From: Micractinium sp. NFX-FRZ | Taxonomy: Eukaryota > Chlorophyta > Trebouxiophyceae > Chlorellales > Chlorellaceae | Assembly (NCBI GenBank): GCA_029339195.1 | Contig: JAPTJF010000112.1 | Location: forward strand, 62,001-126,000 | Direction: 5' to 3' | Length of the DNA: 64,000 nucleotides | Shown here: one piece after another, positions 1 through 64,000 of the stretch | Position numbering within the stretch: position 1 is the first letter of the stretch | Layout: the number at the start of each line of letters is the position of its first letter | The notes under the pieces: model-generated | Seen by the model: only the letters and a program-made list of their open reading frames with translations | Databases searched by the model: none | Told to the model about the DNA's origin: nothing | Position numbers and translations under genes: made by a program

Positions 1-1206
1 CATGAAATGGCAGGACCCCTCACCAGCTCATCACCCCCCTCAATCTTTCGGCCAGTTTGCTTCGACAAACAGGCAGCCCCCACCATTAAATTTGTTGGCA
101 TCATCACATCAAACCTCGTCAGCCCACCTCCGTTTGCCTTCGCTTCCCAGACCCAAAAAATCCACACCCGGTTGGTCACGCCTGGTTGCAGCACGGGCTG
201 CACCGCCATGCGCCTCCCTCCTCCTGCCCCATTCCCTCTCATCGCGCCAGCCCAGCCAGCAACAGCCTCACTTTGTTTGTCACCACGTCTGGCTGCAGCA
301 CCGACTGCGCCAGCAGCGTGGTACGGAAGAGCAGCTTGCCGATACCGCCACGGAAGCGGCCGCCGGCGGGCTGCCCGCTCTGCCCCCTGCCGGCGGACAC
401 GTAGGCAACATTGTAGTTGCCAAAGATGAGGGGGTCCTGCAGCGGGCGCTGCGCCTGCGGGGAGTACAGGGCAGGCGGCGGGCGGGCGGGGGCGTTGGGG
501 CGGGGTATGGACGGGCAGTTGGGTCTCAACATACTGTACTAGCCGTACAGCAAGCCCAACAACCCGGCTGGGTGGTCGCACCCGTGTCTCTCCAATCTCG
601 CCCAGCTCCTGCAGCCAGCCGTCCACTTGCTGGCGTGCTTCTGCCGTCACCTTGTCGCCGCCGTCTGCACATGCAGGCGGCGGGAGGGTGGCCAGGATGT
701 GGGGCGGCGCCTGGGGAGGCCTTTGCAAAGCTGCCTGGCACAGCAGCTTGTGCACGCTCTGAGCAATCGCTTAACCAGCAACAACTCCCCCCCTGCTGAG
801 AAGCTTCTCCACCGGCCTGCACTACAAAAGCTCAAGCCCGCACTTACCGCTGTCCTTGATGGCTGCCAGCACCTTGTCCACGAGCTCATCCGCCCGTGCG
901 CTGCCTACATCACCTGCACGAGCACAAGCAGCAGGCGTGGGTCAAAAGCTGCGCCAGCGAGGGAGGTCAGCCATGGCAAGGCGGGCGGCCGGCAACGCTA
1001 CCTGTCGCAGGCGCCGCGTCGGCGGCGGCGGTGTTGGGGCGCCGAAGGAGCTGCCTGGCGGGGAGCAGCCTGGCGCGTCCTGCGAGCGTGGCATTGCCGG
1101 GGGCCGCCTTGGCGAGCCGGCAGGACCGCCCGTGGGCAGCTGGAAGCGTCTGCCGCTCTTGTGGGAGCGGCTGGCAACGGGGGGTGGTTGCGGCTAGGAG
1201 GCCCAT
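1..1206 (-). CDS. Plastid-lipid-associated protein (PAP/fibrillin family), 3' end cut by window edge
   Basis: Fibrillins are plastid lipocalin-like proteins that bind lipids or prenylquinones in plastoglobules and thylakoids. Four exons were read on the minus strand: 1206-1002, 913-848, 664-582 and 454-272, with GTAGCG, GTAAGT, GTGCGA and GTGAGG donors and consistent phases. Exon 1 encodes about 68 residues rich in Arg, Ala and Pro without acids at the start, typical of a plastid transit peptide. Exon 2 gives a helical segment around ADELVDKVLAAIKDS. Exon 4 holds the family signature: DPLIFGNYNVAYVS, then GQPAGGRFRG and SVLQPDVVTNK. About 179 residues are present; the rest of the barrel lies beyond base 1. 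The ATG at 1206 is the first in frame before the transit peptide. The family is clear; which fibrillin subgroup it belongs to is not. Confidence 0.8.
160..207 (-). repeat. Degenerate copy of fibrillin exon 4 3' end plus splice donor
   Basis: On the minus strand this intronic stretch reads VLQPGVTNRV and then GTGTGG. It matches the end of exon 4 (266-311), which reads VLQPDVVTNK followed by GTGAGG. The match covers about 45 bases with a 3-base gap and keeps a GT at the donor position. It lies about 100 bases downstream of the real exon end, inside the next intron. Confidence 0.6.
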
Positions 1207-1341
1207 TCTGTCAGGCCCAGACCTTTACTGGGCAATCGCACAACAGCGCATTGCGCTTGCTGTGAGCCCTGGCCATCTGATGGCCCGCTCAGCACGCAGC
1301 ACGTTCTTCCCGATTGTTACCGACCCTCAGGCGTTCCAATA

Positions 1342-7100: not shown

Positions 7101-8424
7101 TCGCTGGCTGCATCAGCAGCACCGCAGGTTACGGTTTACCCCCCCACTCGTACTCCTCGCCGCCTTCTCTACCGTCTCCCCCCTCCGACCCACCCTCTCA
7201 CCCTCCCCGCCGCCAGACCCCGCCAAGCGCATCACGATTCATGAGATCCAGGACCACCCGTGGTACATGAAGGACCTGCCGCCCGGGGTGAAGGAGATGA
7301 ACGACAACATGCGCATGCCGCCCGCGGGCAGCCAGGTGCGGTGGTGCTGACGGGTGTTGAGGGCAGGGGCAGCGGGGTGGAGGGATGGGGGATGAAGGAT
7401 GCCGTGCATGTGCCGCGTGCGGGCAGGCAGGGCGCGTGCAAACAAGCAAGCCTGGGCCGCCGCTGCAAGGGCTGGCTCCGGGTCAGAAAGCCAACAAGAC
7501 TGACCCCTGCAGTGGCGGCGGGGTGAGCGGCTGTAGGCCACCGAGCGGCAAGGTCTCCTGGCCGCCGCTCGCCTCCCCCTCGTTTCTTCCCTTGCCGTGC
7601 TTCCATCCTGGGCTGCTTCATGGTGTTGCTGTGGAGGTTTGTCCGTGATGGTGTGCTGCCCACACCTCCGTGCCCTTCCCTTGCCTCCCCTCGCTTGGCC
7701 CCACCTCCTCAACCCCTCCCCTGCACCACCTCCTCGACTTGCCCTTCCCCTCACCGCCCCTCCCTCCCCTGCTCCACGCCCCCTCTTCTTCATTTGCTGC
7801 CTGCAGACGGAGGCCGACATTCGGGCGGTGGTGCAGGAGGCGCAGAAGAGCAGCGCCAGCAACCCGCCGGGGTGGGAGGTGCGTGCCCCCGGGCAGAGCA
7901 TGCGTGCGCCTGCCGGCGGCACCGTGCAACTGCTCGGCCTGCCAGCTGGGCAGTCTATGCATGCCCTCGCGTGCTCACCACAGGATGGTCTGCCTTCCAT
8001 CCGATGTCTTGTGGCTACAACAACACTGTGGGTGCCGAGGCTGCGGGGAACTGCAGAAACTGGTTGAAAGCAACGCACACACACTCGACACCTGACGGGC
8101 ACCGGCGCCGCTTGACATAGCTGACTGCAGGGCGGCTACATCGACGGCACCACCACAACAACCAGGAAGCAGACGGTGCTGCATTGCCTGCCACTGACCG
8201 CGCATCAATGAGCCCCACCAACTACCATGCATGCAGGGTGATAACACTGACAACACGTTGGATGCGTAGAAACCGCGCGAGCGGTCCCTGTCCCTGCAAG
8301 TACCCGAAACTGACGTTGCATCCCAAGCGCCACTTCCACAATTCAATTGCAGGACGACTACATTGACGACACAATGGATGCGGAGAACTATGAGAGCTCC
8401 TTTGACGAGTGGGGAGCCAGCTAG
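4124..8424 (+). CDS. SnRK2-type serine/threonine kinase A
   Basis: Green-lineage SnRK2 kinases act in osmotic, ABA-like and nutrient stress signalling. Eleven exons: 4124-4175, 4382-4483, 4684-4758, 5021-5176, 5721-5789, 6024-6149, 6469-6582, 6868-6955, 7217-7335, 7807-7878 and 8353-8424. They total 1044 bases and encode 347 residues, the usual SnRK2 length. Visible motifs are a loose P-loop (LNSGTFGFV), catalytic Lys in VAIKFIERG, alpha-C Glu in YVEREI, catalytic loop [13 protein letters not shown] (Asn replaces the HRD His), CDFGYSK, and [11 protein letters not shown] with APE intact. The tail is acidic, ending [20 protein letters not shown], as in the SnRK2 C-terminal box. Its neighbour at 9479 is a tandem paralogue with exons of identical length (69 and 126 bases). 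Two decayed copies of the last exon lie in the final intron. Confidence 0.92.
8123..8153 (+). repeat. Degenerate copy 1 of SnRK2-A last-exon acceptor
   Basis: TGCAG followed by a GGYIDGT-coding stretch mirrors the true acceptor and DDYIDDT start of the last exon at 8348-8378, with about 80% identity over 28 bases. It lies in the last intron, about 220 bases upstream of the real exon. Confidence 0.55.
8233..8272 (+). repeat. Degenerate copy 2 of SnRK2-A last-exon acceptor
   Basis: GCAGG, then a stretch matching 8349-8388 with about 80% identity, including the shared TGGATGCG core. In the reading frame of the real exon the GAG codon after GCG is a TAG stop, so inclusion would truncate the acidic tail. 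Confidence 0.65.
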
Positions 8425-9478: not shown

Positions 9479-12400
9479 ATGAAGAACGCGCAGCCGCCAG
9501 GAGGGGCCCAGCAACAACAGCAGCAGGCGGACACAGCGCGCAGGTCAGTGTGGCCGTGCCCCACCCTATGCAGCTTTACGAGGCGCTGCAAACCCGTGGT
9601 AGCAGCAGAGAAAGTGCCAAGGCCTTGCGCCAGCTTGAGCACTGCTGGAGGGCCCAGAAGCGGTAGCAACAGCGGTGGGTGGCGGGCACTGCTGTGGGGA
9701 GGCCGGTGCGCCCCCTCCAGTGCCCAGGCCATCTCAAGGCTGCTCTTGGCACCGTGCCCCTCACATACTCTGTACTACCAGCACCAGCCTCCCGCCGCCT
9801 CTTCTTGCTGCCAGGGCGCCCCACGCACCTCCCGCCGGCCTGCCTCCCCGCCCTGGCCCCTGCGCGCTGGTCCCGCCCTCCACCCCTCGCTGCCCCGGCC
9901 CTTGAAGGGACCCTTTTCCACCGCGTCACCACCCCCGGCCGGCGCACCCTCCCCTGTCCCGCAGCTCCATCAACTCGGCCGGGGAGCTCGAAGGCGACTT
10001 TTTGGAAGGGCACCCACGGTACACGCAGGTGCGGCCCTCGTGCACCCACAAACCCCGAACTCCCGTAGCGCTCGGCGGCGGCCTCCCACGCGGCGGCAGC
10101 AGGGGGGCGGCGGGAGGCCCCGTGCCAGCGTGCCAGTCCTCCCTCCTGGGGGCGCTGCCAGGGTCCGCGGGCAGGGCTGGCCTCCACGGGTGGCGTCTGC
10201 GCCTCGTGCAACCAGGGGCAAGCCAGTTGCGGCGCTCCGCCCTCTGCCCCGTTAGCAGCGACTTCCTGCTCTCACCGCTGGTGCTCCCTCGCCGCCGCAG
10301 ATCCGCTACCTGAACCGCGGCGCCTATGGCTTTGTGATCCTGGCGGCCGATGCTGCCACGGGGGAGGAGGTGGCGCTCAAGTTCATCCGGCGGGGGCCGG
10401 CGCACATCACCAAATATGTGGACCGGGAGGTGAGGCTGGCCGGCCGTGGGTTGGGCACGCGTTTGTGCTTCGGTGGGTCGAGAGTCGTTGCGGGGACGGC
10501 ATGCTGCAACCAACACAGTTGTGTGCCTGAAGCTTGGTATGTGTGGGGACCGGGAGGCGAGGCGGGCCGGGGCGCTGGGCAGGGCAGGGGTGCCAGCAGG
10601 GCCGCCAGCGGCACAGGCCGCTCCTGTTTGCCCGCACCAAGCAAGCGCGGCTGCGCCACCCCACATTATCGCCTTGCACGAGGTATCCCTCCTCACCCAG
10701 AGCACTCCAGACTATTGAAACCGGTTCTGCCTTCCGTGCCCTCCCCTCCCCCCCACCCCCCGTGGCGCAGATTGCCAACCACATGCGGCTGCGCCACCCC
10801 CACATCATCGCCCTGCACGAGGTGTTCCTCACCAAGAGCCACCTGGTGCTGGCCATGGAGTATGCAGCCGGGGGGGACTTGTTCCGCTACGTCTCCACCC
10901 GCCGGGGGCTGCCCGAGGACGAGGCCCGCTGGTTCTTCCAGCAGCTCATGGTGGCCGTGGACTACTGCCACAGAATGGTGGGCACTGGTGGAATGGGTGT
11001 GCGTATGTGTGTGTGTGTGTGTGTTTGTGTGCGCGTGTGAGTAGAGGAACAGGGGAGGGTGCGCGCTGGTTGTTCCAACAGCTGATGGGAATGGTGGGCG
11101 CTCATGCAATGGGTGTGGCTGTGCGTCTAGTCTAGTTGAGTCTGTACAGCTTACCACCGTTGGGCAGTTGTGGCTGTGCGTGTGGGGGGCTGTGCAGGAG
11201 CAGGGCAAGGATGCATGCTGGGACGTACTGCACAGAGGCACGAAGCGGCTACTTTGCAGCGGAGCGCAGCGCGCGGCACAGCATCCTCGCTGCAGCATTC
11301 GCGCTGGTGCGAGCCAGCAGGCAGGGGCATGCGTCAGCATGTCTGGCCCAGTCTAAATGCGGGGCAGCAGTACGAGCACACCGGGATAAAACGCTGCTGT
11401 GGGCCCGCTGCTGCAGGGCGTGACGAGTCGCGACATCAAGCTGGAGAACACGCTGCTGGATGGCGGGCAGTGGCCGCTGATCAAGGTGGGCCAGGGGGGG
11501 CAGGGCCTGCTGCCGGCATCAGCAAGAGGTGTTGGTGCGGGGGCGCCCGAATGCCGCCACCCCGGCATGTGCTTTCCCATCCTGGGCGTGTTCTCCGCAT
11601 GCCGCCTGTGCGGTCTTGTTACAGACAGGAACCCTTGCAATGTGCCCTCTCTGGTCCCACCCCTACCCTCTGTGGCGGCCAGCTTTGGGTGCATTGCAAG
11701 CTACAAAGCTGAACAAGACAGCTTGCCTGCCCACCCCCTGCACGCACTCTGCAGCTGGCTGACTTTGGGTTCAGCAAAGATCCCAAGCAGCAGAGCGAGG
11801 CCAAGACGCGGGTGGGCACCCCCGCCTACCTGGCGCCAGAGGTGATTGCCGCGCAGCCCGGCAAGAGCTATAACGCAGAGGTGAGGCGGGGGGAGGGGGA
11901 GGGCGGGGGGTGCGGCCGATGCACGCTTGGGCCTGCGCTTCTGGAGGCGTGGGGGTGGACTCGGGCGGGGCGGTTGGTGTGCAGCCCGACATGAGGGAAA
12001 GGCAAGAGGCGCGGCAGCAGCATCGTCGTTGCATGGCACCTCTGTGCCTGCCTGCCTGCCTGTTTGCCGGTCCGGCCGGGGTCCCACACTTCAGCTTGCC
12101 TCCAACCCCCTTCTCCCGCCTGCCGCCCCGCATGCAGAAAGTGGACATCTGGTCGTGCGGCGTGCTGCTGTATGTCATGGTGGTGGGGCGGTACCCCTTT
12201 GGGTGAGCGGGGCTGCCGACAGCAGGCGCTGCTGTCGCTGCTGCTCACATCCCCGGTGGGGCAGCCGGTCCACCTGCTGCGCCTGCGCAGGCGTGCATGC
12301 CATGCCGCTCGAGTGCGCGCCAGCAGCCTGTGTGTTTGTGAACCAAGCGCTCTGTCTTGCTGCAGATCAGTGCATGCTGCCACCGGGGGCTCGTCCCGTC

Positions 12401-13984
12401 ACGCTGCATGAGAGCAGCACAGCCCGCCCCTGGCCACCAGCCCCGCCGTGCCTCAGCCCACCCATCCCCGCAGGCTGCCCACCAACGCGGCCCTGGGCCC
12501 CATGCTCTATATCATGCTAATTTAATCGTCCATTTCATCATTACCTTGAAGTGATTGCCTGTTGAAACACACTCCGTGCCGCAGGCTGCCCAGCGACGCG
12601 GCCCTGGACCCCATGCGCCGCCTGTCGCGCATGATGGAGCGCACCATGCGGGCAGAGTTCACGTTCCCGCCTGAGAAGCCAGTCAGGTGGGCGCCCTCTG
12701 ATGGCACAGGCACGGCACAGGCACAGTGGTTGAGGGGCGGATGAAGGGTTTGTGCACGGTCAGGACGCCTGCGCGGTGCCTGGCATGGTATGCGCTGGTG
12801 CGCATCATGTTCCGTACCAGTCTACCCTGGGTGCGCTGATGCTCCGCCCCTCCTCACCTGCCGCCTATGTGGGCCGCACCTGTGCTGCGCTCCTGGGTGC
12901 TGCAGTGAGGGGCTGAAGGACTTGATCCGGCGGATCCTGGTGCAAGACCCCAACAAGCGGCCCTCGCTGCTGGTGAGCCAGCACAGCACAGCACAGCTCG
13001 CCCCAGCCCTCCCGGCCTGGCCGATGACCAATAGGGCCTCCCCCTGCGCTGCCCGTCCCCCCCGCCCGCCTGCGCTGGTTGTGTGTGGTGCGCCGGCCCA
13101 CTGCCTATCTGCCGCAAACATTGCCGGCACAGCACACCCCTTGCCGCGTCCCCCTCCCCACCACCGTCCACCCTGCCGTGCCCCGCCTGCCCCGTGTGCC
13201 CGCCCGCCTCCCCTGCAGGACATCCAGGCCCACCCCTGGTTCATGCAGGGCCTGGAGCCGGGGGCACTCAATTTCAACGATGCCATCGTGCAGGTGTGGG
13301 GGAAGCCGGGCGGGCGGCGGGGAGCCCCGCGGGAACGCGTGCAGGACGGGCGGCGCGGCGGCTGCAGGGCGGGCGAGCCTGGTCGATTGTAGCCCGCAGG
13401 CTGGCCCCCCTTGTTGCCCCCCGCTGAACCGTGTACATGCACCCCATCCTCTTGCTTGCGCTCGGGTGCAGGAGAGCCTGGCCAACCAGCCGACGCCAGA
13501 GATGCTGGCGGAGGTGCACTCGATTGTGCAGGAGGCGCTGAACGAGGGGCCGCTGGGCACTGCCCAGCAGGAGGAGCAGGCGCAACAGCAGCAGCAGGCG
13601 GCAGGTGAGCACAGCGTGGCTCAGCGCGCTGAGGTGCCTGCGTGAGGCTGCACCCGTGCCGCCACCGCAGCAGCCGTTGCAGCAGGAGCAGCATCGCAAG
13701 TAGCGGTGCTCGACGCATTGGGAAGTGTGTGGCCACAAGCGTGTGCCGCCCCGTACGCCCCCGGCCGTGCAGGCCACGTGCCCACTTTGTCAGCATGGTT
13801 GCTCGCTGTGCTGCGCTGTCATGCCGTGCTTGCTTGACAACGCACTGTGCTGCGCTGTGCTGATGCCACACCATGCTGTGCGGCGCTGTGCTGTGCAGCT
13901 GACGACGGCGGCGCCAACGACATGATTGTCAGCGGGGATTTGTCCAGCTACCTCACCTCCGGCACGCTCCCCCCACGCAGCTAG
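9479..13984 (+). CDS. SnRK2-type serine/threonine kinase B (tandem paralogue)
   Basis: Twelve exons: 9479-9543, 9965-10028, 10301-10429, 10771-10977, 11417-11485, 11755-11880, 12138-12202, 12585-12686, 12906-12972, 13219-13293, 13472-13604 and 13899-13984. They total 1188 bases and encode 395 residues. Kinase motifs: [37 protein letters not shown] (Ser in place of the HRD His), ADFGFSK and [11 protein letters not shown]. The N terminus has a Gln run. The C terminus after the HPWFMQGL segment carries a helical ESLANQPTPEMLAEVH region and a Gln run and ends without the acidic SnRK2 box, so regulation probably differs from kinase A. Shared exon lengths with A (69 and 126) show descent by tandem duplication. 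Three introns contain decayed copies of adjoining exon edges. Confidence 0.9.
10647..10703 (+). repeat. Degenerate copy of kinase B exon 4 5' part
   Basis: This intronic stretch aligns with 10785-10841 of the real exon (the LRHPHIIALHEVFLTKS coding region) at roughly 88% identity with two 1-base indels, so the frame is broken. It lies about 140 bases upstream of the genuine copy. Confidence 0.75.
11061..11125 (+). repeat. Degenerate copy of kinase B exon 4 3' end and donor
   Basis: It matches the RWFFQQLM coding segment, then lacks about 20 bases, then continues through AATG/GTGGGC and into the intron (AATGGGTGTG), mirroring 10926-11005. The copy spans the exon, the splice donor and the intron start, so it duplicated as genomic DNA rather than through a spliced message. 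Confidence 0.7.
12469..12503 (+). repeat. Degenerate copy of kinase B exon 8 acceptor
   Basis: GCAGGCTGCCCA and the following bases match the real acceptor and exon start at 12579-12614 in about 31 of 34 positions. The copy keeps an intact CAG acceptor about 110 bases upstream of the true one. Confidence 0.75.
12979..12998 (+). repeat. Short CACAG pentamer tract
   Basis: About four CACAG units immediately after the exon ending at 12972. This is the only such tract seen in the opposite sense to the GCTGT tracts of other introns. Confidence 0.5.
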
Positions 13985-17077: not shown

Positions 17078-20000
17078 ATGGCGGCAGATCAAGATGCAAC
17101 CGATGCGGAAATCGCTCGGCTGTTGGTGAGCTTGAACAGGAGCAGGGGCCTGATCACCGCCACGCCACATCATGTTGCCTCTGGCGGGCCTGCACACGTC
17201 ACTGGCGGGACCAACTGCTGGTGATGGGGCCCGCAGAGGGCGCGGAACGGTGGCGACAGTTTGCCGGCCTGGCGGGGCGGGGTGCCGCCTGACCGCCCGC
17301 CGCTGCTGCAGCACTGGTGACGCTGCTGTTCGTGTGAGCCCTGCCTGTCCTGCTTTAAATTTGTCATACAGGCCGCTGACAACCCGGAGCAGTTCTACGA
17401 ATATGACTTTGGGGAGCAGCAGCAGCAGGAGGACGATGACTCAGATGCTGACCCCGACTATGGCGGCGACGGCGGCAAGAGGACCAAGAAGGGTGGGTTG
17501 GCGGGTGCGTTGGGTTCCTGGGAGGATGCTGTTGCAGGAGCTGCTGGGAGGTGGTGTGAGAAGCACCCAGTCACAGAGTGGGCGGCCGGCTTGGTCGTAA
17601 CGCTGTCGAAACCAGGTTGCAATGCAGATGGGTCCTTGCATGCCGTCGCTGCCGCTGCTCCCGCCTGCTGGGTCCGCTGCACTCGCTGCTGGGAATGCTG
17701 CAGTTGCCAGCGGTGCTCCTGCTGCCTGCCTGACACGAGCCCTGCTGGCATCATGCCTTGTGCACTACAGGCAAGAAGAAGCGGAGGCCTGGGGAGGGCG
17801 AGGGCGATGCAGCTGCTGCTGGCGTGCCTGTGATGCCTGCCGTCGCTGGCTTTGACTCCGCTGCTGCGGCAGCATACGGGGTTGCGCCCGCCGCCGCCGC
17901 GCCGCAAGCAGCCGATCCCGCAGCAGCAGCAGCAGCAGCAATGCCGGGCATGGCAGTAAATGGCAGCGGCCTGCAGGCGGCTGGCCTGCCCGGCGGGTCG
18001 CTGCCTGGCCTGGCCATCACGGCTGACCAGCAGATGCTGCAGCACCAAATCATGATGCAGCAGCAGGCGCTGGCGGCAGCGCTGGCGGGCAGCGGCGGCC
18101 CCGGCATGACGGGGCTGCAGATAGCGCTGCCGCCAGGTGTCAGCTTGGAGCAGGCCTCCCTGATGGGGCTCCCCATCATGGCGCTACCGGTGCAGCTGCC
18201 ACCTGGCGCGCCCGGCGGCGCCCCGGGGATGCACGGCATGCTGCCCAAGATGGCCCCCGGTGCGGGCATGAGCATGCACGGGCTGCCTGCGCTGGCGCCG
18301 GGGCTCCCGGGCATGGCAGCACCGGCGCGGCCGGCCTCGGCGGCGGCGGCACGGTCCTTGGCAGCAGCAGTAGATGACGAGTTCACCGCCACTGGGCGGC
18401 GCAAGCGCAAGGACACAGGTGCGCCAGTATCCTTGTAAGGGGCTAGTTGGGGGGCAGTGTGTGTGCCAGCACCTTCACTGGGGGAGAGGGGAGGCGCCGC
18501 CTGCTGGGAGGGCGGCAGCAGCGTGCCCGCATCAGGCAGCGTGGCTTCTAGCGGGCGCCAGGACTAGGGTTCCGGCAGGTGCCAGGGATTTGGGTCGCAG
18601 CAGGCGCCCGGACTAGGGTTCTGGCAGGTTGCGCCACTCCAGGGCTGCCACTCCCACCCGCATTCGCAGCAGGCCACGCCTCTGCCTGGCCTGCCGCCCC
18701 CTTGCCGGGGTGTGCCTCACTGCTGGCCCTCACTTCTAGGCCGTGCATGTGCTTTTGCCCCTCGTTGCTTGACCGCGCCTTTGTCTTGTGGGCCCCAATC
18801 TCTGCAGGCAAGCAGCGGCAGCAGTCACGCAGCTGGACCGACGACGAGGAGCGGCTGTTCCTGGAGGCATTGCAGCTGTATGGCAGGTGAGCAATCGGTT
18901 CGTAAAAGAGAGGTACTGCGGCTGTCAGTTGGTATCGGAAGGTGTGAGGCAGCTGCACAGAACACGGTGGGGAGCGGCAGCTGTATGGCAGGTGAGCTGT
19001 CTGCACAGAGATGTACTGCGCGTATAGGCAGCTGCAAGGCCGCTGTACGGTGGGGTGAGTAGCGGCTCTTTTTGGGGGCATTGCAGCTGCACGGCAGGGG
19101 AGCAGCAGGCAGGGGAGCAGGGGGAAGCCATGCTAGGCAAGCCTCCCAGGCATCGGCAGGTCCGGGGGGGAAGCATTGATGAAGGCAAGCAGTGCAGTGA
19201 GGCACGCAAAGGTGGCTGGTGCAGAAGGCAGGGTGGCGGGAGTGCTTGCTAGAGCTCTGTGAGAGTGGTTTGTTTGAGAGCCTGCCGTGCCCCCACTGCC
19301 GCGCTGTGGTGTTGTTGTGCAGGGACTGGAAGCGATGTGCGGAGCATGTGGGGTCGCGTGACCACCGGGCGTTCACGAGCCATGCACAGGCACGTCCGCC
19401 CCACTGTCCTCTGGGCTGCCAATTGGGCCGCGCTGCCTTGCGCGGCCACATTGCCCCTGCTTTGCAGCTGCCCACCTGGTGTGCCTGCCTGCCCACCATG
19501 CCTGCCTGCCTCCCCGCCGTGCTGTGCCGTGCTGCCCCCCTGCCTGCCACCCTCTGGCAGACGCACTTCAGGAGTCGCTGCGCTGCCCGCCACGCTGTGC
19601 TGCCCACCATGCTGTGCCTTGCCGTGCTGCCCTCCCGCCCTGCCTGCCTGCCTGCCCTGCAGAAGCACTTCATCAAGCTGCTGCTGCGGGGGGAGGAGGT
19701 GCCTCCCAAGGTTGCGGAGACGGGGCGCGGCTACACACTCTCGGGTGGGCATGCGGGCGCCGTGGGGTGGGGTTTCTGCGCCCTTGGCATGTGTGCGGCT
19801 CGTTGGTACGGCAAGTCTGCTGTGCCCGCCCGCCTGTGCGGCACAAGGGTGGCAAAGTGCCACGGCATGGCACGGCTGTTGCGCCAGGGAGCTGCTCAAG
19901 CGCCAGGGCATGCCGCTATGCCGCCAAGCAGAGCACCACTGCTTCACCTGCCAGTTGTGCCCTCCTCCGGCACACGTCTGCTCTCTTGCCTGTCCTTTGC

Positions 20001-46689: not shown

Positions 46690-49428
46690 ATGGGCCGGAA
46701 ACGCAGAGCGGCGGCCATCTCGGAGGCGGCGGCTGATGCTAAAGCACCTGCAGCCCCAGTAGAAGACGAGCTCACCGAGATGGAGATGGAGCGTGCCAAG
46801 ATGTACTGTTTGAACACTTTGCCAGCGCCGCCGCCTGCCAGGCGTGGGCAGCCTGGGGCCGCCGGTGGTGTTCAGCGCCCAATTTCTCGCAATAGACAGC
46901 ACTCTTATCAGGCCTCACCTATCACAATGTTTCCTGCACCACCCGCTGATAACCCAATCTGCAGCATTGAACGCAATCGTGCACGCCTGGCCGCGCTGGG
47001 GATCCCCGGCCTGGTGGCGGCGCTAGATGCCGGCGGCGGCAGCAGGGGCAAGGGCAAGGCGGCGGGTGGCATGAAGCAGGAGCGGCCGCCACGGGTGAAG
47101 AAGGAGAAGGGGGGAGCGGCGGGGGAGGAGCGCCCCACGCGGCGCTCGCGGCGGCTGCAGGAGGCTGAGGAGCACCCGCAGGTCAAGCACGAGACAGGTG
47201 GTCAAGCCCAGCTGTCCACCTGTCGTCACCTCTGCCCGTGCAGTGCTGTGATCTGCTGGCTGTGCTCTAACGCCCCGTGTGGTGGGGCGGGCGGGCAACG
47301 GCAGTGTGCAGAGCATTCAGGTGCCAGCTGTTGCTGTGTAGGTGTGGGGTGACAGACCCCCCTGCCTGTCATCACCCCCCTCCCGTCGCTGTCCTCCCCG
47401 CCGGAGTGCCCTGTCCATCCTTGCCCCCCGCAGCTGAGGAGGCATTTGAGCGGGAGCTTGGACAGTTTGTGGTGGAGGGGGAGTGCCCCCGCTGCGGGCG
47501 CACGCTGGAGCGCGGTCACAAGGCGCACCTCACAAGCTGCAGCGGCAGGGCCAGCACAGCGCGGCGGGCGGCCGGGGGGCAGGCGGGGGCGCCCCGGGAC
47601 GATGCGCTGCAGGTAGGGGAGGGAGCTTGGGAGGCAAGCAGGTGGTGTGGGCGGTGGACGGAGTGGTGTGAGCGAGCGGGCGAGGTAGCTGGGCGCGCCT
47701 GAGTGGTAGCATCAAAGCGCTGCAGGCAGGGGAGTGTAGGCAGGTTGCTGTGCGACAGCAGTGAGGGGATGGATCTTGATGAAACAGGGTGCGGGGCGGG
47801 GGCAGGTGAGGTTGGCGCTCGTGCCCAGCCCTGCTGCCCTCTGCTCACACCCTCGCTCAACCCTGCTTCGTGCGGCTGCATGGGGCGGCGTCTGCTGGCC
47901 TCCCTGACTGCCTCACCGCCAGCCGCCCCACGCCCACCCCGCTGTACCCCTCTTCCCTGCGCACGCTGCCGCACACCTTGGCGACCCCGCCCCGCTCCCT
48001 GCTGTGCCCCCTGCTGTGCGCACTGCTTTGCAGGGTCTGTCGGAGTCTGAGCGGCGGGACCGGCACAAGGTTCTGGAGGCCCGCATGAAGCAGCTGCACC
48101 TGGATGGCCTGGTGGAGCTGGGCAGCGAGGCAGCCAAGTGAGCGGGACGGCGCATGGCGCCCCCGGGAGTGTGCACTTGCTTGCTTGGGCTTCTCACAGC
48201 CTGTGACGCCGCAAGCGAACTTGCGGCACAGCCTGGCGGCAGCACGTCAACCGCACCACATGCATCGCAGCTGAGCACCGCCCCTACTCCGGTAGTGTTT
48301 CTGCAGCGCCCGGCCAGCTCCCGCAGCACACCCCGAATCCCCTCTGCCCTTCTTTCTTCTCACCCACCCCCCTGCTGCTGCCGGTGTTGCTGCTGCCTGG
48401 TCCCCTTGCTCCCACCAGGTTTGTGGTGCTGGGCAGCAAGGGCAACCATTACACTGTGGCGCTGACGGACGCCAAGCACACCTGCCAGTGCATGGACTAC
48501 CGTGAGTGGGCTGGCAGGCAGCAGGGGCAGCAGGGCGGGGGGCGAGGATGGGTGGGAGGGGCAGCAGCCGGGGGAGCCTGCCGGGCTGGGCTGGCCTGGC
48601 AGGTAAGTTTGTGTGGGGGGGGAGGTAGAAAGCGGGGCAGGTAGAAAGCGACTTCCTGGGGCTGCTGCAAATCGACTCCCCGGGCTGCTTGTGTGTGTGG
48701 CTCCAGCTGCCAGCGTGACCCCAGCTGCTGCTGCGCCCCTGCAAGCTCACCAGCGCGCCTCTTTGCTGTGCTGTGCTGCGCTCTGTTGCGCTGTGCAGGC
48801 TTCCGGCGGCACCACTGCAAGCACATCATGCTGGTGCTGTCGCAGCTGGGCTGCGAGGAGACGCCCAAGCAGGTGGGGCCTGGCTGCGCTGGGGCGGGGC
48901 CAGCTGTGCTGTGCACAGGCTGCTGGGCTGGTGCGGCTCTGCCCTACCCATGCCTCTAGTGCACCATCTCTCAGTATGGCCCCATGCCACGTCACCTCAC
49001 CCTCGCCCCCCACGTAACAGTCACAACTGTAAGGGCGTCATGCGGAAGAGGGACGGTTGGTTGACGCGCTGGTCTCACTGCCCCACCATACTCTCGTTCA
49101 ACGCCCTCCCCCACACGCCCTGTCTTCATATGCGGCAGCGGTGGCCAGCGGTGGACACGAGGCCGGACGAGCCGCCGCAGCAGAAGCAGCCCATGCCTCC
49201 GCCCATCACCCTCCCATCTCATGCCTCTACCTTGCAGCTGCACTCTGTCCCTCACCCTATGCAATGCCTGCCCCCACCTCCCTTCCCTTCATACTGCAGT
49301 GGCGCCAGGCGGTGGAGGCGCGGATGGACGAGCTGCTGGAGCAGAAGCGGGAGCGGGATGCGATGGAGGCGCGCACCCAGGCGGTGCCCATCAGCAAGGG
49401 TGACCAGGTGGCGCTCAAGATGCTGTGA
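46690..49428 (+). CDS. SWIM zinc-finger protein with WDR76/CMR1-like N-terminal motif
   Basis: Six exons: 46690-47197, 47434-47612, 48034-48137, 48419-48501, 48799-48872 and 49300-49428 total 1077 bases, 358 residues. The N-terminal half has NPICSIERNRARLAALGI and later TRRSRRLQ, the pattern seen upstream of the beta-propeller in WDR76/CMR1 proteins, but no WD repeats follow. A CPRCGRTLERGHKAHLTSC segment (about residues 178-196) looks like a small Cys/His zinc knuckle. The SWIM finger spans two exons: FVVLGSKGNHYTVAL, CQCMDY, then RRHHCKH (CxC...CxH complete). A helical tail (RQAVEARMDELLEQKRERDA) ends the protein. SWIM domains bind DNA or protein; this one's partner is unknown. The start ATG directly follows the 5' flank and begins with MGRKRRAA, a basic nuclear-type N terminus. 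Confidence 0.82.
48765..48798 (+). repeat. GCTGT-type pentamer tract at a 3' splice site
   Basis: An imperfect TGCTGTGCTGTGCTGCGCTC run leading directly into the acceptor CTGTGCAG at 48798. Confidence 0.6.
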
Positions 49429-52900: not shown

Positions 52901-55900
52901 CCGCTCCTCCTCCTCCTCCCCGCTGCCCTCCTGCTCCCCATCCTCACTGCCGCTGTCGCCCGCGCCCCAGTCCTTCTTGCCCGCCCGCTCCTCTGCCTCG
53001 CCGCCGCCCAGCAGCAGGCGGCGGTACCGCTCCCGTATCGCCTCCTCATCCTCCTCATCACCACCACCACCCTCCTCCTCTTCGGACTCCGCCTCGCTCT
53101 CAGACGCCAGATAAGCCTGCAGGCAGCGCCAGGTAAGGGGGCGTGTAAATGAGGATGGCCACAAGGTGAGCCACACAAGCTGAATGGGGCATCTTCCAAC
53201 TACTTGACCTCGCTCTCTTGAGAGAGAGCATCATGTTTACTCTTCATCCTCCTCCTCAGCTGCCACGATGCGCTTGAAATACCCTCCTATCAAACCATCC
53301 AAACCCAGCCCAGCCCAGCCCAGCCCAGCCCAGCCAAGCCGCCCCCCTCGGCCAAGCACCCACCTTGAAGCCGCTCCTCCTTCAGCCCAACAGCCATGCC
53401 ACATTTGCTGGCCCGCCACCCCCACCCACCCCTGCCTTCCACCCGTGCCCCTGCCCCTCCCCCCCACCTTGAAGTCGTCCTCCTTGAGCTCCTCCGCCGT
53501 CACCTTGCGCGTCAGGGCCCGCTTGCGCCCGTCGTCGTCGTTGTCCCACGTCAGCTGCACGCTCGTGTGCTGCAGCGCGCGCGCCTGGAACGTGGGCGGC
53601 GCGTAGTCTGCGTGACAGCGGGGGGAGGGCAAGGGGAGCGGGGCCGGTGGGGTGGGGATGTGTGCATGGAACAAATGCCTGTGGCGGGTGAGGGGTGACA
53701 TGCCGCATCGAGGCAGCTGTGGAACTGGCGCTTGCATGTCCCAGCGGCCAGCCAGCACCAAGGGCAGCTGTCAGTCGCAGCTCCCCCTGCCTTCCCCCCG
53801 TCTCCTTCTCTCCACTGCTGCCCCTGCTGCCTCTGCTGCCCGGGCGGCCCACGGCTCCAGTTTTGCAGGCAGGCCAGCCCGCCGCACCTGAGGGCACCTC
53901 GCCGGCATCATCCCGGACCTGCCGCCCCTCAAAGGACTGCTCATCAGGGACGAAGCGCAGGTCAAACTTGCAGGCGGCTGCAGGGGGGGCAGGGCAGGGA
54001 AGGGGCGGGGGAAGGAGGGGGCAAAGGGGGCGTGGGGTGAGCAGAGCGAGCGGAGCAAAGAGGTGGGGCCTGCAAGGTGGGAGGACGGGCCCGGCGCAGC
54101 GTGTGCTGCTGCCAGCTGTGAGGACAGCTGCCGTGGCGCAGCACAGCGCGGCCGCAGCAACGCACAGCACAGCACAGCACTCTGCTGCTCACTCTTCATC
54201 AGCTCCATGCCATCGCACTCCTCATAAATCTTGTTGGCGGTGGCTGCATGCATAGAGGGTAGAAGCAGGCAAGTTGAAAGGGGCTTCCAGATGGGCAGGC
54301 AGACCAGCCGCAAACGAGGCATGGCCTAGCGCACTCATCGCCACCCATCCTCCCTCCCCTGCACGCCTCACCCACCGCCGGAATCCGAGAGGTGATGGCA
54401 TAGCAGCAGCAGCACAGAGCTTGGCACTCCCCTGCCCAGTCGTCCGCCGGGCCCCCAGCCCCTCGGTCCCTAGAGCTTGCAACCACCCACCTACCCAACC
54501 ACCCACCGGCGGAGTCACAAGAGATGATTGCGTAGTAGTATCGCAGCTTGGAGCGCTCATACAGGCGCAGGCGGCGCCTGTCCACCTCCTCGCCCTCATC
54601 TGCTGGGGAGCAATGCGTCGTCAGGGAGGGAGGGGTGCATGAATACATGAAACAAAGTGCAGGTGGAGGAGGATAGGGGTGGTGGAAAACGAAGAAGGGA
54701 GGGTGTCGGCCCACAACACAGGACCGGCAGCCCGGCAAAGGGGCGTCGCTGCCAGCCAGACAAGGGGCCGCGCCTTTTGAAAACGCGCTGGGTTTGCTGT
54801 GCGCAGCAGATAGTCACGCCCCGGCCATAGGTGGGGCCCGCCTGGGCGGGCCCCGGCCGGCGCGCCGGCTTATTTACTGCGGGAAGATAATGTGCTGGGC
54901 GTGGCGTGCGGGCGCAGGGGCGGCAGGGAGCAACGGGTAGGCAAGCAGGCGTGCGATTTGGCCAGGCAGGTGGACGTCAGGCACGTTGGCCATGCTGACG
55001 ATGGCAAGCAAAAGCACGCAGGGGGTGGCAGGGCGCAGGTGGAAAGCGCTGTAGCAGCTGAACGCCCAACACGCCCTGCGTGCACCCCCCTAGCCATGGA
55101 GCTCTCAACGTTGGCCCTGCCCCATCCCACCCTGCTCGCACCCGAGTCGGATCCCGAGCCGCCCTCCTCCTCCTCCTCCTCCTCCTCCTGCTCAGCATCA
55201 TCATCAGCAACCTCCTCCTCCTCCTCCTCCTCCTCCTCTCCCTCCTCATCGCTGTCCGCTGCTGCTGCCGCTGGCGCGCGCTGCTGCGGCGGCGGCTTGC
55301 TGCCGGCGGGCCTGAAGATGCCCTGGGGCCCCATCACCGCCTCCTGAGCCATGCGCTGCAGCCCATAGTCTGCATGCCATGAGTGGGCAGGGGCAGGGCA
55401 GGTGCGGGGGCAGGCAGAAGTCAGGGCAGGGGCAGGCAAGGTGGGCCGGCGGTTGTTGGGCAGGCAGGCAGATGGGCGGTGCAAGGTCATGAATGGGGAG
55501 GCTGCCCACCCAACGCATGCCATGCCGCAACTCAACTGCAGCTGCAGACACCGCAGCCCCAGCCTGCACAGGAGTTGGATCACCCCTACAGCACGGGATA
55601 CCCACCCACCCACCCACCCACAGCATGCTCAGCATGCGCAGCACGCACCCGAGGGGTAGACGGTCACGTTCTCAATGGCGCCGCCCTTGGGCACAAACGA
55701 GCGCAGCACAGCAAAGATGTCCACCGCCCGCACATGCTCCCAATCTAGGTCCACGGCTGCCAGGCGGTGCGTGGCGTCCGGCAGCAGCGGGATCTGCAGG
55801 GGAGCGGGGTCCAAGGAGGGCGCAGGGGGTGGGCGAGCGGATGGTGCAGGCAGCCGGGCGACGGAAGCGTGACAGCCAGCGGTGGGAGAGGGGAGGGTGC

Positions 55901-58101: not shown

Positions 58102-59423
58102 ATGTTTGAGGCCGCTCCGGACGTCTTCTTCAAGCCTGCCACGCTGCCAGACCTCGAACGGATCGCAGAGCTAGAGGTGGGGGATGAGCCTTGCTGAAAG
58201 ACGATCATGCTCCTTGTTCCCATCGCGGCCGCCGCCGCTCCCGCCGCCGCGCCTCCTGCTGCGCGCCCGCTTCGCGAGGCCACCTCTTGTCCCTGCTTCT
58301 GCTCCCCAACAGGCCGCAGGGTACCCACCAGACGAGGCCGCCAGCCGGGAGCGGCTGGAGTATCGGCTGCAGCACGGTGAGGTCATCTGCCGGCGCCGGG
58401 GCCGCTTGCTGGCACCAGGCTGGTTGCCGAGTCTCCATCATGCAAGATTGCATGCAGGGCAGCCTCACCCGTACACAACAGCTCATCCACCCGCTAGTCA
58501 TCTCACCCCCATCACCTTTTGTTGCTCTTGTTGCAGCTGGAGATCAGTTCCTGGCAGCGGTGCAGCCGGCAGCAGATGCGGAGGGCGGTTTGCGCCTGAT
58601 CGGCTTTGTGTGCGGCACGCTGAGCCACGCTGAGCGGCTGACGCACGAGTCGATGGGGGTGCACGAGCCGGAGGGAGGTGGGTGCTGCAGGCGAGGGTCT
58701 GCCTGCAGGGGTGGAGAGCTGCTGGCCATCCACAGCACGTGCGGCCGCCGGGCACCGCCATACGGGGGTGGCCACCCTCCTGCCTGCCCTGACCCTCTCT
58801 CCCCACGAGCGCCCCGCACCCCCTGCAGAGCTGCTGGCCATCCACAGCGTGTGCGTGGACGCGGCGCACCACCGCAAGGGGGTGGCCACCCGCCTGCTGC
58901 GAGCCTACCTGGGATTCGTGCAAAGCACCACCCCGCAGCTGCGGGAGGTACGCCTTGCCAAGGGCACAGCAGCAGGGCTGGGGGCACGAGTGGCGCCTCC
59001 GTCACTGCCTCTGCGTCTCTCTCACCCTGCTCACACTGGCGAGCGGGGAACATCAGACAACTGCCCCCTGCTGCAGCTGCGCCTGGCCTGCAAGGAGCTG
59101 TTCATCGTACAGCACGTTGCTCTTCTTATTGCAATCCTTGGGAGTGCCAAGGGTTGGTCAGGCTATGCTTTGCCCAACTGCCCCAACACGTGCAGGTGCG
59201 GCTGATATGCAAGGAGCTGCTCATCCCCCTCTACTCTGGGGCCGGCTTTCAAATGGTGGGCCCCTCGGATGTGGTGCACGGCCAGGACCCCTGGCACGAA
59301 CTGAGGTGGGCTCCGGAAGGCAGCGAGGGGGATGACGACGATGGCGATGGCGGGGAGGAGGCGCGGCGGGATGGGCAGGCGGAGCAGCAGCAGCGAGAGC
59401 AGCAGCAGGGGGTGGCGCAGTGA
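58102..59423 (+). CDS. AANAT-like GNAT N-acetyltransferase
   Basis: Predicted arylalkylamine (serotonin-type) N-acetyltransferase using acetyl-CoA; substrate unproven. Five exons: 58102-58176, 58313-58376, 58537-58677, 58829-58947 and 59196-59423 total 627 bases, 208 residues. It starts MFEAAPDVFFKPATLPDLER and continues with AAGYPPDEAA, LIGFVCGTL, LTHESMGVHEPEG and LLAIHSVCVDAAHHRKGVAT. The last is the GNAT motif A with R-K-G-V-A for acetyl-CoA pyrophosphate binding. LYSGAGFQMVG near the C terminus is motif B with the usual Tyr/Gly-Phe. The THESMxxH segment is typical of non-vertebrate AANATs. The tail after DPWHELRW is acidic then Gln-rich and probably disordered. Two introns carry decayed copies of the following exon start. 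Confidence 0.85.
58702..58789 (+). repeat. Degenerate copy of motif-A exon
   Basis: GAGCTGCTGGCCATCCACAG, a nearby GGGGGTGGCCACC and an upstream CTGCAG repeat the real exon at 58823-58905. Identity is about 75%, with small deletions that break the frame. It lies about 110 bases upstream of the functional acceptor. Confidence 0.78.
59067..59112 (+). repeat. Degenerate copy of last-exon acceptor
   Basis: AACTGCCCCCTGCTGCAG and LRLACKELFIV-coding bases repeat the true acceptor and VRLICKELLIP start at 59178-59228. The copy keeps an intact CAG and an open frame for 12 codons, so it could be used as an alternative acceptor or exon. Confidence 0.75.
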
Positions 59424-59728
59424 CGGTGCAAGGTGCAGCTTTATGTGTGTGGCGGTCATCTTTTAGCGTCTTTTCAAGTTTTGCAACGATTTGAACTGAT
59501 AAAGAGAGGGGTAGTGCAGCCAGATGGGGTGGTGGGCGCGCTGCGCTCGCATGCCGCTTGGCCTGGCGGGGCGCCCGCACCCGCCAGGCATGCATGCTGC
59601 CCCGCCGTGACGCAAGGACATTCTCGCATGCATTTCTTGCCAAATACAAGCTTCCGATCCTGATTTACTGCCGCGAGACAGGCAGGATGCAAGCGTGCAG
59701 CTCGTTGCGTGGGGTTTGGGCTCAGCCC
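59424..59728. other. Intergenic, about 305 bases
   Basis: 3' flank of the acetyltransferase and upstream region of the next coding stretch. Nothing specific recognised. Confidence 0.45.
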
Positions 59729-61901: not shown

Positions 61902-63189
61902 ATGCAGGCTACGAGCAGGTGCCTGCAGGCGCCTGCAGCCTGCTTCTCGCGCCGGCCGCTCCAGGCAGACCCGCAGACAGTGTCGCGCCGCGGGCAGGCA
62001 GCATATGCAGGCAGACGGGCGGCTGGCGGCGGTGGGCGTGGCGAGCCGAGGCCGTGGCTCGAGGAGGTCACGCTGAGGCGGGAAGGCGTGCCCCAGCGTT
62101 ACAAGTTGGTCACCCAGGCAGACCTGACTGACATTCTGCGCGCGCACGGGGCGGTTGGGTTCAAGACGGCTACTGGCGGCGTCAGCCGGTGGCTGGGGGC
62201 CCTGGCAGAGGGCGCTGACGTTGAGCTGGTGATGCCACACGAGTTCCCGATGGCAACGCAGGTGCGCCCTTGGTTGCTTGTCGGCCTGCAGGTGGAAGAA
62301 GAGCCCTCCTCGCCAGTCAGCAGGCATGCTGCCCTGCATCTCAAACAGCGTGCATCAGCAGCCCTGCCGTCCTGACCCCGACTCGTGCGGTGTCTAACTT
62401 GCAACAGGCTGATGACAACATCACGCGCGGCAAGCAGGAGCAGCTGGGCGCGTGCCTGCAGCACCTTGCCAGCTTGGAGAACCCTGGCTGCGCCATCACC
62501 GCTCTGCCAACAACGCCCTTCAAGACCGCCAAGGGGGAGGTGAGCAGGGCTGGCTGCCCATGCACACCATGCGGCATTGCAGCAGCCGAACCCCAACATC
62601 TGGCTGCTGCTGCCTCCTGCCCCAGCACCGCTGCTGCCCAGCACCCTGTGCATGAGCAGCAGGGCTGACAGTTGCCCCTTCCGACCACCCTCTGCAGGAC
62701 TACCTGCAGATGCATGCGGCGGTGGTGGCCGAGAACACCCTGTTTCTGGGCGAGCACATGCGCGTCCTGGGCGAGGACGGTGTGGGCGCCCTGGCGGTCA
62801 AGCTCTGCAAGATCAGGTGGGCAGGCTGCCCCGGGCAGCAGGCCAGCAGGGCACGCGTGCAAGCGCACGAGCGCGGCAAGGCATTTGCGTGCGTGGTAAT
62901 TGCATGCAAGAGCCAAGTCGTTGCCACAGCCTGACCCCAGCACTGCTGCTGCTGCCCCACGGGCATGACCCCTATGTGCAGGCTAGCGCTCAAGCAGGAC
63001 TCGTCGCCCGACCTGGTGGCGGCGCTGCAAGGCGTGAGGCACGTCAAACTGTTCCTGGGCGGGGAGGTGCAGCAGGGCCTGGCTGTGCAGAAGCTTGTTA
63101 AGCTGGCGGCGGCGGCAAACATGGCCGTAGTGCTGCCCTCCGGACAGGGGCTGGAGGTAGTGGGTGCTACCGCCGCCGTGGGGCTGTAG
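61902..63189 (+). CDS. Unrecognised 272-residue protein, possibly organelle-targeted
   Basis: Four exons: 61902-62261, 62408-62539, 62698-62816 and 62982-63189 total 819 bases and stay in phase to a TAG. The N terminus (MQATSRCLQAPAACFSRRPL, then Arg/Gly/Ala-rich) lacks acids and resembles a transit peptide. The body includes EGVPQRYKLVTQADLTDIL, KTATGGVSRWLGALAEGADV, YLQMHAAVVAENTLFLGEHM and VAALQGVRHVKLFLGGEVQQ, mixed alpha/beta with no motif I know. The open frame extends upstream to ATG 61749, so the start is uncertain; an AG...GT-bounded 19-base segment (HAGYEQ) at 61900-61918 leaves another splice option. Function: not assigned. Confidence 0.6.
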
Positions 63190-64000
63190 CGCCTGTGGCT
63201 TTTGTTTGCTGTCATGATGCAGCGAGCAGCCCTGCTGCGCTCACGCCGCCCTGTTTTCTTGCTGAGCCACAGCGCGGGAGCGCGCTGCCGCCCTCCGCGT
63301 GCGACGCTCCGCTCGTTGCCCTGCTTCCCAGTTGCAAGCATGTGCTGTACCATGTGCTGTACCATGTGCTGTACCATGTGCTGTACCATGTGCTGTACCA
63401 TGTGCTGTACCATGGCCCCCTGCCCTCTTGTCACCATCCTACTCACTGTACATGATCTGACCCCTCCCTACGCCCTTGCTGTGCCAACCTTGAGCGCACC
63501 CAGCTTTGCAACCTCCCGCACATTCTGCCCAGCACCTGCATAGTCGCCAACACATGTGACGCAGTCTTACCACCAGCCTGACTCAACAAGGGTACACGCC
63601 AAGCAGGCAGTATGTTGCAAGTTGCGGCGCCGCGCACGTGCGGCCCGGTGCCGCCCGGGCCGCCGCCCCCAGCCACCGCGGCTGGCGCCCAAGACCAGGG
63701 CCGGCCAAGGGGCCAGTGTGGCTGTCTCACATGAAATGGTGCGCGGGCCGCGGCAAGATGACAATAATGAGGGTGTTGAGCGGGCATGCCTTCACCATCA
63801 AAACAATGGCGAGGGCAGTGGGGAGGGGAGGCCCACCAGAGGGCAGGGCATCCCCAACATAAAAGGACAGAATGGGGGCAAGGGGGAGCACGTCTTCTGA
63901 GGACCAAGATCCTTTGAACTTCAAGCACTGAGGCCCCACTTTTCAAGCACTGAGGCACGACGGGCACAGCATGAGTACTGCGTCACTGCTGTTGTCCTGC
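63190..64000. other. 3' flank and intergenic region to window end
   Basis: About 810 bases without a supported gene. It contains the 12-bp minisatellite at 63341-63412 and a short direct repeat TTCAAGCACTGAGGC (63918 and 63941). Open frames on both strands here lack domain or splice support. Confidence 0.5.
63341..63412 (+). repeat. 12-bp minisatellite TGTGCTGTACCA, six perfect units
   Basis: Six uninterrupted copies, about 150 bases after the stop of the preceding gene and probably in its 3' UTR. Each plus-strand unit contains one ATG at the unit junction. Confidence 0.95.

What the first reader, a model, noticed from the sequence alone, without database searches (positions are those of the whole stretch)
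1..64000. Introns carry decayed copies of neighbouring exon edges, splice sites included, in at least seven genes
I see at least 13 places where an intron holds a 30-110 base imperfect copy of the adjoining exon edge together with its acceptor or donor. They occur in the fibrillin, SnRK2-A, SnRK2-B, JAMM, large helical, ESF1 and acetyltransferase genes, on both strands. Copies lie about 80-220 bases from the real edge, include intron bases (so they arose as DNA, not cDNA), and range from about 90% to 70% identity. Known models (tandem duplication creating introns) predict duplicated splice sites, but a window-wide population of fossil splice-site duplicates would mean that local 50-120 bp tandem duplication is a major force shaping this genome's introns. 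Copies spanning an edge are the ones I can recognise; purely intronic ones would be invisible and purely exonic ones purged, so the true rate may be higher.
Basis: partly seen in the sequence, partly recalled or inferred. Interest (0 to 1): 0.87.

Follow-up and report, generated by a model that had tools for sequence, protein, structure and literature searches.

The report
Intron decoys copied from exon edges
In this green alga many introns carry a decaying, non-coding copy of the neighbouring exon edge about 100 bases from the real one, apparently a fossil record of short in-place duplications that lengthen introns without changing the protein.

Summary
Of 852 exon edges tested (426 introns, window plus 20 other contigs), 67 have a copy in their own intron at score >=30. 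Controls: 9 of 3,408 against other genes' introns, 3 of 2,556 against shuffled introns. A scan without gene models found 85 local direct pairs and 0 inverted ones at score >=38 (103 and 1 at >=34), with offsets piled up at 95-125 bp (41 of 85; 14.6 expected).

The copies look non-coding: differences are nearly flat over codon positions and 16 of 19 gaps are out of frame. Introns with a copy are longer by about the offset (median 361 against 248). Each event looks like a ~100-bp duplication in place across a splice site.

Two corrections. Plain tandem duplication is not the whole story: in 25 of 40 strong pairs the stretch between the copies shows no homology to the DNA beside the decoy. And purely intronic pairs are visible, but fewer than expected.

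Best reading: end-joining repair of staggered breaks ~100 bp apart, often with filler (inferred). One boundary-crossing potato duplication is published. No RNA data or related genome was available.

The parts
8232..8271 (+). decoy copy (acceptor type) in intron 8176-8352; real edge 8348-8387
   Evidence: score 35, 78% identity, shift 116
10544..10570 (+). decoy copy (donor type) in SnRK2-B intron 10430-10770; real edge 10417-10443
   Evidence: score 39, 89%, shift 127
10647..10703 (+). decoy copy (acceptor type) in the same SnRK2-B intron; real exon 10785-10839
   Evidence: score 70, 86%, shift 138; kinase domain confirmed
12468..12505 (+). decoy copy (acceptor type) in SnRK2-B intron 12203-12584; real edge 12579-12616
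   Evidence: score 61, 92%, shift 111; no match to SnRK2-A at E 0.01
12506..12578 (+). 73-bp spacer between decoy and real edge, without homology to the decoy flank
   Evidence: only itself found in own genome
16398..16434 (+). decoy copy (acceptor type) in intron 16239-16486; real 16495-16531
   Evidence: score 44, 84%, shift 97; spacer homology p 0.03
22631..22679 (+). decoy copy (acceptor type) in JAMM-gene intron 22372-22749; real 22745-22796
   Evidence: score 72, 88%, shift 114; 3-bp deletion and, by eye, an in-frame TAG
22680..22744 (+). 65-bp spacer without homology to the decoy flank
   Evidence: only itself found in own genome
26248..26296 (-). decoy copy (donor type) in intron 25849-26362 of the large helical gene; real 26349-26399
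   Evidence: score 59, 84%, shift 103; spacer homology p 0.007 anchored, 0.35 local
49124..49187 (+). decoy copy (acceptor type) in intron 48873-49299; real 49287-49348
   Evidence: score 45, 75%, shift 163
53359..53386 (-). decoy copy (donor type) in ESF1 intron 53117-53467; real 53463-53489
   Evidence: score 37, 89%, shift 103
54369..54406 (-). decoy copy (donor type) in ESF1 intron 54244-54506; real 54500-54538
   Evidence: score 34, 79%, shift 132
58712..58783 (+). decoy copy (acceptor type) in acetyltransferase intron 58678-58828; real 58824-58897
   Evidence: score 80, 82%, shift 112
59058..59106 (+). probable decoy of acetyltransferase exon edge 59175-59225 (my gene finder called part of it a 39-bp exon)
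   Evidence: self comparison without gene models, 78%, shift 117; exon call
18977..19104 (+). two successive copies (18977-19020, 19057-19104) of the exon end region 18846-18920
   Evidence: self comparison without gene models, shifts 105 and 211

Best explanation
Each decoy is the inner copy left by a duplication in place of a segment straddling a splice site, with about 100 bp added per event. At an acceptor the downstream copy stays joined to its exon and is used; at a donor the upstream copy stays in use. The other copy falls inside the intron, the protein does not change, and the copy decays neutrally.

Shown: both copies, direct orientation, preferred offset 95-125 bp, non-coding behaviour of the decoy, and longer introns by about the offset.

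Inferred: which copy is spliced (from gene models, no RNA); that the events arise from repair of staggered breaks (two opposite-strand nicks some 50-100 bp apart) by fill-in and end joining, often with extra non-homologous filler between the copies. That would give two forms: plain tandem duplications (about 15 of 40) and copy-filler-copy (about 25 of 40). Selection then removes events inside exons, so survivors near exons include the splice site.
For: Own-intron hits 67 of 852 edges at >=30 against 9 of 3,408 non-cognate and 3 of 2,556 shuffled. 85 direct and 0 inverted pairs within 240 bp at score >=38, about 0.24 direct expected from the 1-4 kb density; 41 of 85 at 95-125 bp. Divergence by codon position 0.12/0.13/0.17 with GC3 0.91 in the real copies, so frames are right (0.13/0.13/0.16 with gene-model frames); 16 of 19 gaps out of frame. 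Intron length minus offset fits ordinary introns (MWU p 0.79), minus copy length alone does not (p 1e-5; p 0.0016 against introns >=180). No exon-exon pair among 59, 3.9 expected. 36 of 40 blocks include the splice junction (21 of 24 acceptor, 15 of 16 donor). 15 of 40 spacers homologous to the decoy flank against 3.6 by chance. Tandem duplication by end joining of breaks with protruding ends is shown in mammalian cells (PMC8355091 and PMC5730883, passages seen).
Against: Spacers resemble native intron ends, not random filler: beside real acceptors CT is 0.716 against 0.715 for other introns, and branch-point-like motifs occur in 12 of 24 against 150 of 388 (all 24 acceptor pairs). Random filler should favour donors, yet acceptor events outnumber donor events 24 to 16. 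Edge-intron pairs exceed intron-intron pairs more than slower exon decay explains simply. Seven of 59 pairs are exon-intron (9.1 expected by chance placement) and 4 of 40 strong blocks miss the junction; the simple model does not predict these. Near-identical pairs are scarce: 1 of 85 at >=98%, so a constant-rate ongoing process fits poorly. Longer introns in the hit set could also reflect insertion-prone introns. Splice models come from my own gene finder, without RNA.
Confidence: 0.58

Rival explanations
1. Plain whole-unit tandem duplication of 80-140 bp, with the intronic part simply decayed beyond recognition.
For: Direct only, one preferred size; 15 of 40 pairs show homology through the spacer; 8 of 85 local pairs are contiguous, 68-79% identical; pooled 5-mer matches on the intron side exceed expectation (132 against 80.6 acceptor, 117 against 63.0 donor) and hardly or not on the exon side (64 against 52.1; 12 against 26.9).
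Against: Among pairs >=87% identical only 6 of 20 show it where 20.0 were expected. The 25 negatives pooled show none at acceptors (z -0.4 to -1.2) and only z 1.2-1.7 at donors. Homology on the common diagonal is at background beyond -30 at acceptors, although offsets are mostly about 100-120.
Confidence: 0.2
2. Templated insertion: a ~50-bp patch of the exon edge is copied into the neighbouring intron (polymerase-theta-like or template switching), so that the spacer is original intron.
For: Spacer and decoy-flank composition match native intron at those distances (decoy flank CT 0.635 against 0.628-0.647 at -35 to -75); branch-point-like motifs beside decoys 5 of 24, near the mid-intron level of 70 of 388; spacers without homology to decoy flanks in 25 of 40.
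Against: No inverted copies at score >=38 (0 against 85); 36 of 40 blocks include the junction although exon-only copies in introns should be just as harmless; introns are longer by the whole offset, not the copy length.
Confidence: 0.15
3. Insertion of an introner or other mobile element with a long target-site duplication.
For: Copy-spacer-copy anatomy resembles a target-site duplication.
Against: Both spacers searched (2 of 40) match only themselves in the 66-Mb assembly. Among 55 spacers the best pairwise scores are 32 and 28, against a maximum of 27 in half as many shuffled comparisons. Some published introner families have 3-9 bp target-site duplications (PMC9860276, passage seen).
Confidence: 0.02
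4. Decoys are functional alternative exons or splice sites kept by selection.
For: The acceptor A and G positions agree in 0.79 and 0.88 of decoys; one decoy was read as a 39-bp exon by the gene finder.
Against: Differences nearly flat over codon positions, frameshifts common; the T of the donor GT agrees in only 0.56 of 16.
Confidence: 0.04
5. Unequal exchange between alleles or hybrid genomes with diverged introns.
For: Would explain exon-limited homology and native-looking spacers.
Against: Third-position excess only about 4.5%; alleles with unalignable introns should differ far more at synonymous sites.
Confidence: 0.03

Closest known systems
Tandem duplication crossing an intron-exon boundary in the potato RdRp gene (PMC4974935; abstract and Results section read)
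   Same: A tandem duplication spans the intron end and exon start and carries putative branch site, polypyrimidine tract and acceptor with it; the same gene had another 83-bp tandem duplication within an intron.
   Different: One gene, recent; it created a new spliced intron with exon sequence added. Here there are dozens of events in 264 kb, no new exon sequence is inferred, and most strong pairs have a spacer without visible homology.
Small tandem duplications from breaks with protruding ends (PMC8355091, PMC5730883, passages seen; rice study of Vaughn and Bennetzen and Arabidopsis study of Schiml et al. seen only as citations)
   Same: Direct, local, end-joining-compatible short insertions.
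   Different: There the repeat is immediately adjacent by definition; here about 60 bp without visible homology lies between most copies, and the offset is centred near 100 bp.
Intron creation by tandem duplication of an AGGT-containing exon segment (reviewed in PMC3443670, passages seen)
   Same: Tandem duplication as a source of intron sequence and duplicated splice sites.
   Different: That makes a new intron inside an exon; here an existing intron seems to grow and its edge is duplicated.
Introns gained with short direct repeats in Daphnia, attributed to break repair (as described in PMC3443670)
   Same: Direct repeats around inserted sequence; staggered-break repair proposed.
   Different: Short repeats flanking a whole new intron, against 24-86 bp copies that mostly include an existing splice site.

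Membership tests
Local tandem duplication (mutational class) | Direct, same-strand, local copies | tested here: met
   85 direct, 0 inverted within 240 bp at score >=38; 103 and 1 at >=34
Local tandem duplication (mutational class) | Copies contiguous: homology through the whole period | tested here: inconclusive
   seen in 15 of 40 edge pairs, not in 25 of 40
Local tandem duplication (mutational class) | Sequence gained equals the offset | tested here: met
   indirect: intron length minus offset matches other introns, p 0.79
Intron gain by tandem duplication | A new intron position is created | not testable with these tools
   needs orthologues and RNA; real edges are inferred to stay in use
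Introner / transposon insertion | Inserted sequence belongs to a repeated family | tested here: not met
   2 of 2 spacers searched (of 40) match only themselves; no clear family among 55 spacers
Staggered-break (paired-nick) repair products | Dependence on end-joining / Pol alpha-primase | not testable with these tools
   needs genetics
Staggered-break (paired-nick) repair products | Microhomology or filler at junctions | tested here: inconclusive
   spacers without homology in 25 of 40, but native-like composition; junction microhomology unreadable after decay

The most novel reading that the evidence does not exclude
Exon edges in this lineage are hot spots for a stepwise intron-lengthening process with a ~100-bp quantum that duplicates the splice site and supplies, in the same event, ~60 bp of new sequence able to serve as an intron end. 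Repeated rounds would leave a graded series of fossil splice sites (one exon in L020 seems to carry two successive decoys on one side and a third on the other).
Probability: 0.2. Interest if true: 0.78.

Novelty: new variant of a known kind. Interest (0 to 1): 0.57.

Why it matters
How introns grow, and where new intron sequence comes from, is often argued from single events or from mobile elements. If about 8% of tested exon edges carry a datable fossil duplication, one compact algal genome offers a large natural sample of neutral intron growth at splice sites: rates, sizes, decay, and how the spliceosome keeps choosing the right copy. The ~100-bp preferred offset, the near absence of inverted copies and the non-matching spacer are testable constraints on the repair mechanism. 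Decoys are also a hazard for gene prediction: my own gene finder took one for an exon.

Tried and rejected
One search was faulty (masked N matched N and inflated controls); corrected. The first gene-finder training collapsed into too many introns and was redone with stricter priors. The 55-pair set, used, had left out 8 contiguous pairs (spacer <=15 bp); one search repeats the placement count with them (59 pairs) and the picture is the same. The edge test used 426 of 561 predicted introns (those >=110 bp with flanking exons >=20 bp).

Ideas dropped: spacers as a repeat family; spacers templated from elsewhere within 2.5 kb (38 of 40 spacers: direct hits at >=34 in 3 of 76 comparisons, inverted 0 of 76, controls 0 of 456; the three lie at the tandem position); inter-allelic exchange; coding decoys; strong clustering of events by contig (p 0.13); repeated decoys on one edge (6 of 40 at >=30 where about 3 are expected, 4 of 40 at >=38). 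The acceptor/donor difference in spacer homology (6 of 24 against 9 of 16) is not significant (Fisher p 0.09). A tandem paralogue of the acetyltransferase 3' part starts too close to the edge to test its decoy. Eight paper searches showed me only the potato case as a boundary-crossing duplication; I saw listings, and the library is open-access only.
Full report
What was examined. The window is part of contig C112 of a 66.07-Mb, 838-contig assembly, GC 66%. Among the 120 best listed matches to the first SnRK2 kinase the top two are Auxenochlorella (92% identity) and Chlorella variabilis (95%), so I take it for a Chlorella-clade green alga. To see whether the finding is local I fetched 20 stretches of 10 kb, one from each of contigs C1-C20: 264 kb in all with the window.

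Test without gene models. Each stretch was masked for short-period tandem repeats and compared with itself. At score >=38 there are 85 direct pairs 60-240 bp apart (overlapping members of small families counted separately) and no inverted pair within 240 bp; at >=34 the counts are 103 and 1. The density of direct pairs at 1-4 kb predicts about 0.24 (4 pairs). Offsets are not uniform: 41 of 85 lie at 95-125 bp where 14.6 would be expected (binomial p 4e-11). The window has 12 of the 88 pairs listed at 40-300 bp; 3 of the 20 other loci have none. So the pattern is not confined to the window.

Gene models. I wrote and self-trained a two-strand gene finder. It learned donor CAG|GTGAG and acceptor TGCAG|G, and an intron median of 234. 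Window models include a CbiQ-type protein, two kinases, a JAB/MPN protein, ESF1 and a GNAT acetyltransferase by Pfam (7 sequences from 6 of 9 models). The 189-aa fibrillin-like protein had no hit. Splice sites are predictions, not RNA-proven, and neighbouring genes are sometimes merged.

Edge test. For 426 of 561 predicted introns (>=110 bp, flanking exons >=20 bp) each exon edge (up to 80 exon bases plus 25 intron bases) was aligned with its own intron. At >=30: acceptors 41 of 426, donors 26 of 426; non-cognate length-matched introns 4 of 1,704 and 5 of 1,704; reverse complement of the own intron 1 of 426 each; introns shuffled in two-base blocks 3 of 2,556. At >=38: 24 and 16, non-cognate 0 and 0. 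Together 67 edges in 64 of 426 introns.

Anatomy. The 40 strong pairs (>=38) split into 24 acceptor and 16 donor types. Of the acceptor blocks 21 of 24 start 3 to 25 bases before the exon (25 is the limit of the query) and 3 start inside it; of the donor blocks 15 of 16 end 2 to 23 bases inside the intron and 1 stops short of it. Offsets are 77-218 (acceptor) and 94-151 (donor). On the common diagonal identity peaks near the junction (0.77 at acceptors, 0.75 at donors) and is at background beyond -30 and +60 at acceptors.

Decoys look non-coding. Differences between decoy and real exon are 0.12, 0.13 and 0.17 at codon positions 1, 2 and 3 with frames chosen exon by exon, and 0.13, 0.13, 0.16 with gene-model frames; GC3 of 0.91 in the real copies shows that frames are right. 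Sixteen of 19 gaps are not multiples of three. The small third-position excess is what slow synonymous change in the real exon would add. This speaks against alternative exons and against exchange between strongly diverged alleles.

Length gained. Hit introns (38) have median length 361 against 248 for the other 388. Subtracting the offset gives a distribution like the others (p 0.79); subtracting only the copy length does not (p 1e-5; p 0.0016 against introns >=180). So the event probably added copy plus spacer. That insertion-prone introns are simply longer is not excluded.

The spacer. In a plain tandem duplication the stretch between the copies must match the stretch beyond the decoy. Against composition-matched controls 15 of 40 do; 37.5 would be expected from neutral decay at each pair's own divergence, and about 3.6 by chance. 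The 25 negatives pooled show no signal at acceptors and a weak, non-significant one at donors (z 1.2-1.7); the 15 positives a strong one. Both groups have similar offsets, 12 of 15 and 19 of 25 within 94-140. Both spacers searched genome-wide (2 of 40) match only themselves, 55 spacers form no clear family, and no other local template was found for 38 spacers. A caveat: short local alignments overstate identity and can stop at an indel, as at 10647-10703, where the decoy seems by eye to reach further left, so some negatives may be hidden tandem copies.

Duplication in place or templated insertion. For duplication: direct orientation; 36 of 40 blocks include the junction; exon-exon pairs absent (0 of 59, 3.9 expected); whole offset gained. 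For templated insertion: spacer and decoy flank have the composition of native intron at those distances, and branch-point-like motifs are at native level in spacers (12 of 24) but near background beside decoys (5 of 24). I put duplication in place first (0.58 with filler, 0.20 plain) and templated insertion at 0.15.

Edge preference. Of 59 non-overlapping pairs at score >=44, contiguous ones included, 33 are edge-intron (12.8 expected by random placement), 7 intron-intron (15.7), 7 exon-intron (9.1) and 0 exon-exon (3.9) (one search gives 30, 7, 8 and 0 of 55 without the contiguous pairs). Slower decay of the exon copy gives edge pairs a detection advantage of roughly two (my estimate), so part of this may be visibility; I do not claim an insertion preference.

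Age. Identities of the 85 local pairs run mostly from 70 to 96%, with 1 at >=98%. Either the process has slowed or young events are lost. Of five SnRK2-gene stretches compared with the window, three match their own exon and not the other kinase, one (8232-8271) matches nothing else at E 0.01, and one (11061-11088) matches the SnRK2-A exon at 5123-5145 rather than its own. So the idea that the decoys are younger than the split of the two kinases has mixed support.

Place among known things. Small tandem duplications from breaks with protruding ends are shown in mammalian cells (PMC8355091, PMC5730883: passages seen), and tandem duplication as a source of introns is reviewed in PMC3443670 (passages seen). 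The closest single case is the potato duplication across an intron-exon boundary (PMC4974935: abstract and Results read). I saw no report of a genome-wide population of such fossils in the listings of eight searches of an open-access library, which is not proof of absence.

Verdict. Real and well above chance: a large population of short duplications at exon edges, of a known mutational kind but with unusual features (100-bp offset, almost no inverted copies, a non-matching spacer in the majority).

Noticed in passing
introns of window and L002-L021: Introns have a long strand-specific composition gradient: G-rich over the first ~100 bp and C-rich over the last ~100 bp.
   Followed up: partly
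L020:5859-6420: One 77-bp exon has a decoy on each side (both 92%) and what looks like an older second decoy further upstream, as if the edge had been duplicated repeatedly.
   Followed up: partly
window 59164-60231 and L023:1501-2567: The 3' part of the acetyltransferase gene and its downstream DNA has a tandem paralogue (84% identity) just beyond the window's end.
   Followed up: partly
window 11061-11088: A stretch paired with 10924-10951 in SnRK2-B matches a SnRK2-A exon (5123-5145, 91%) better than its own exon.
   Followed up: no
window 24870-24935 and 63339-63414: Perfect tandem arrays: 22 bp x 3 and 12 bp x 6.3.
   Followed up: no
L013:1801-2793: A diverged direct repeat with a shift of 283 bp.
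   Followed up: no
local pairs in window and L002-L021: Scarcity of near-identical pairs (1 of 85 at >=98%) suggests the process slowed or that young events are lost.
   Followed up: no
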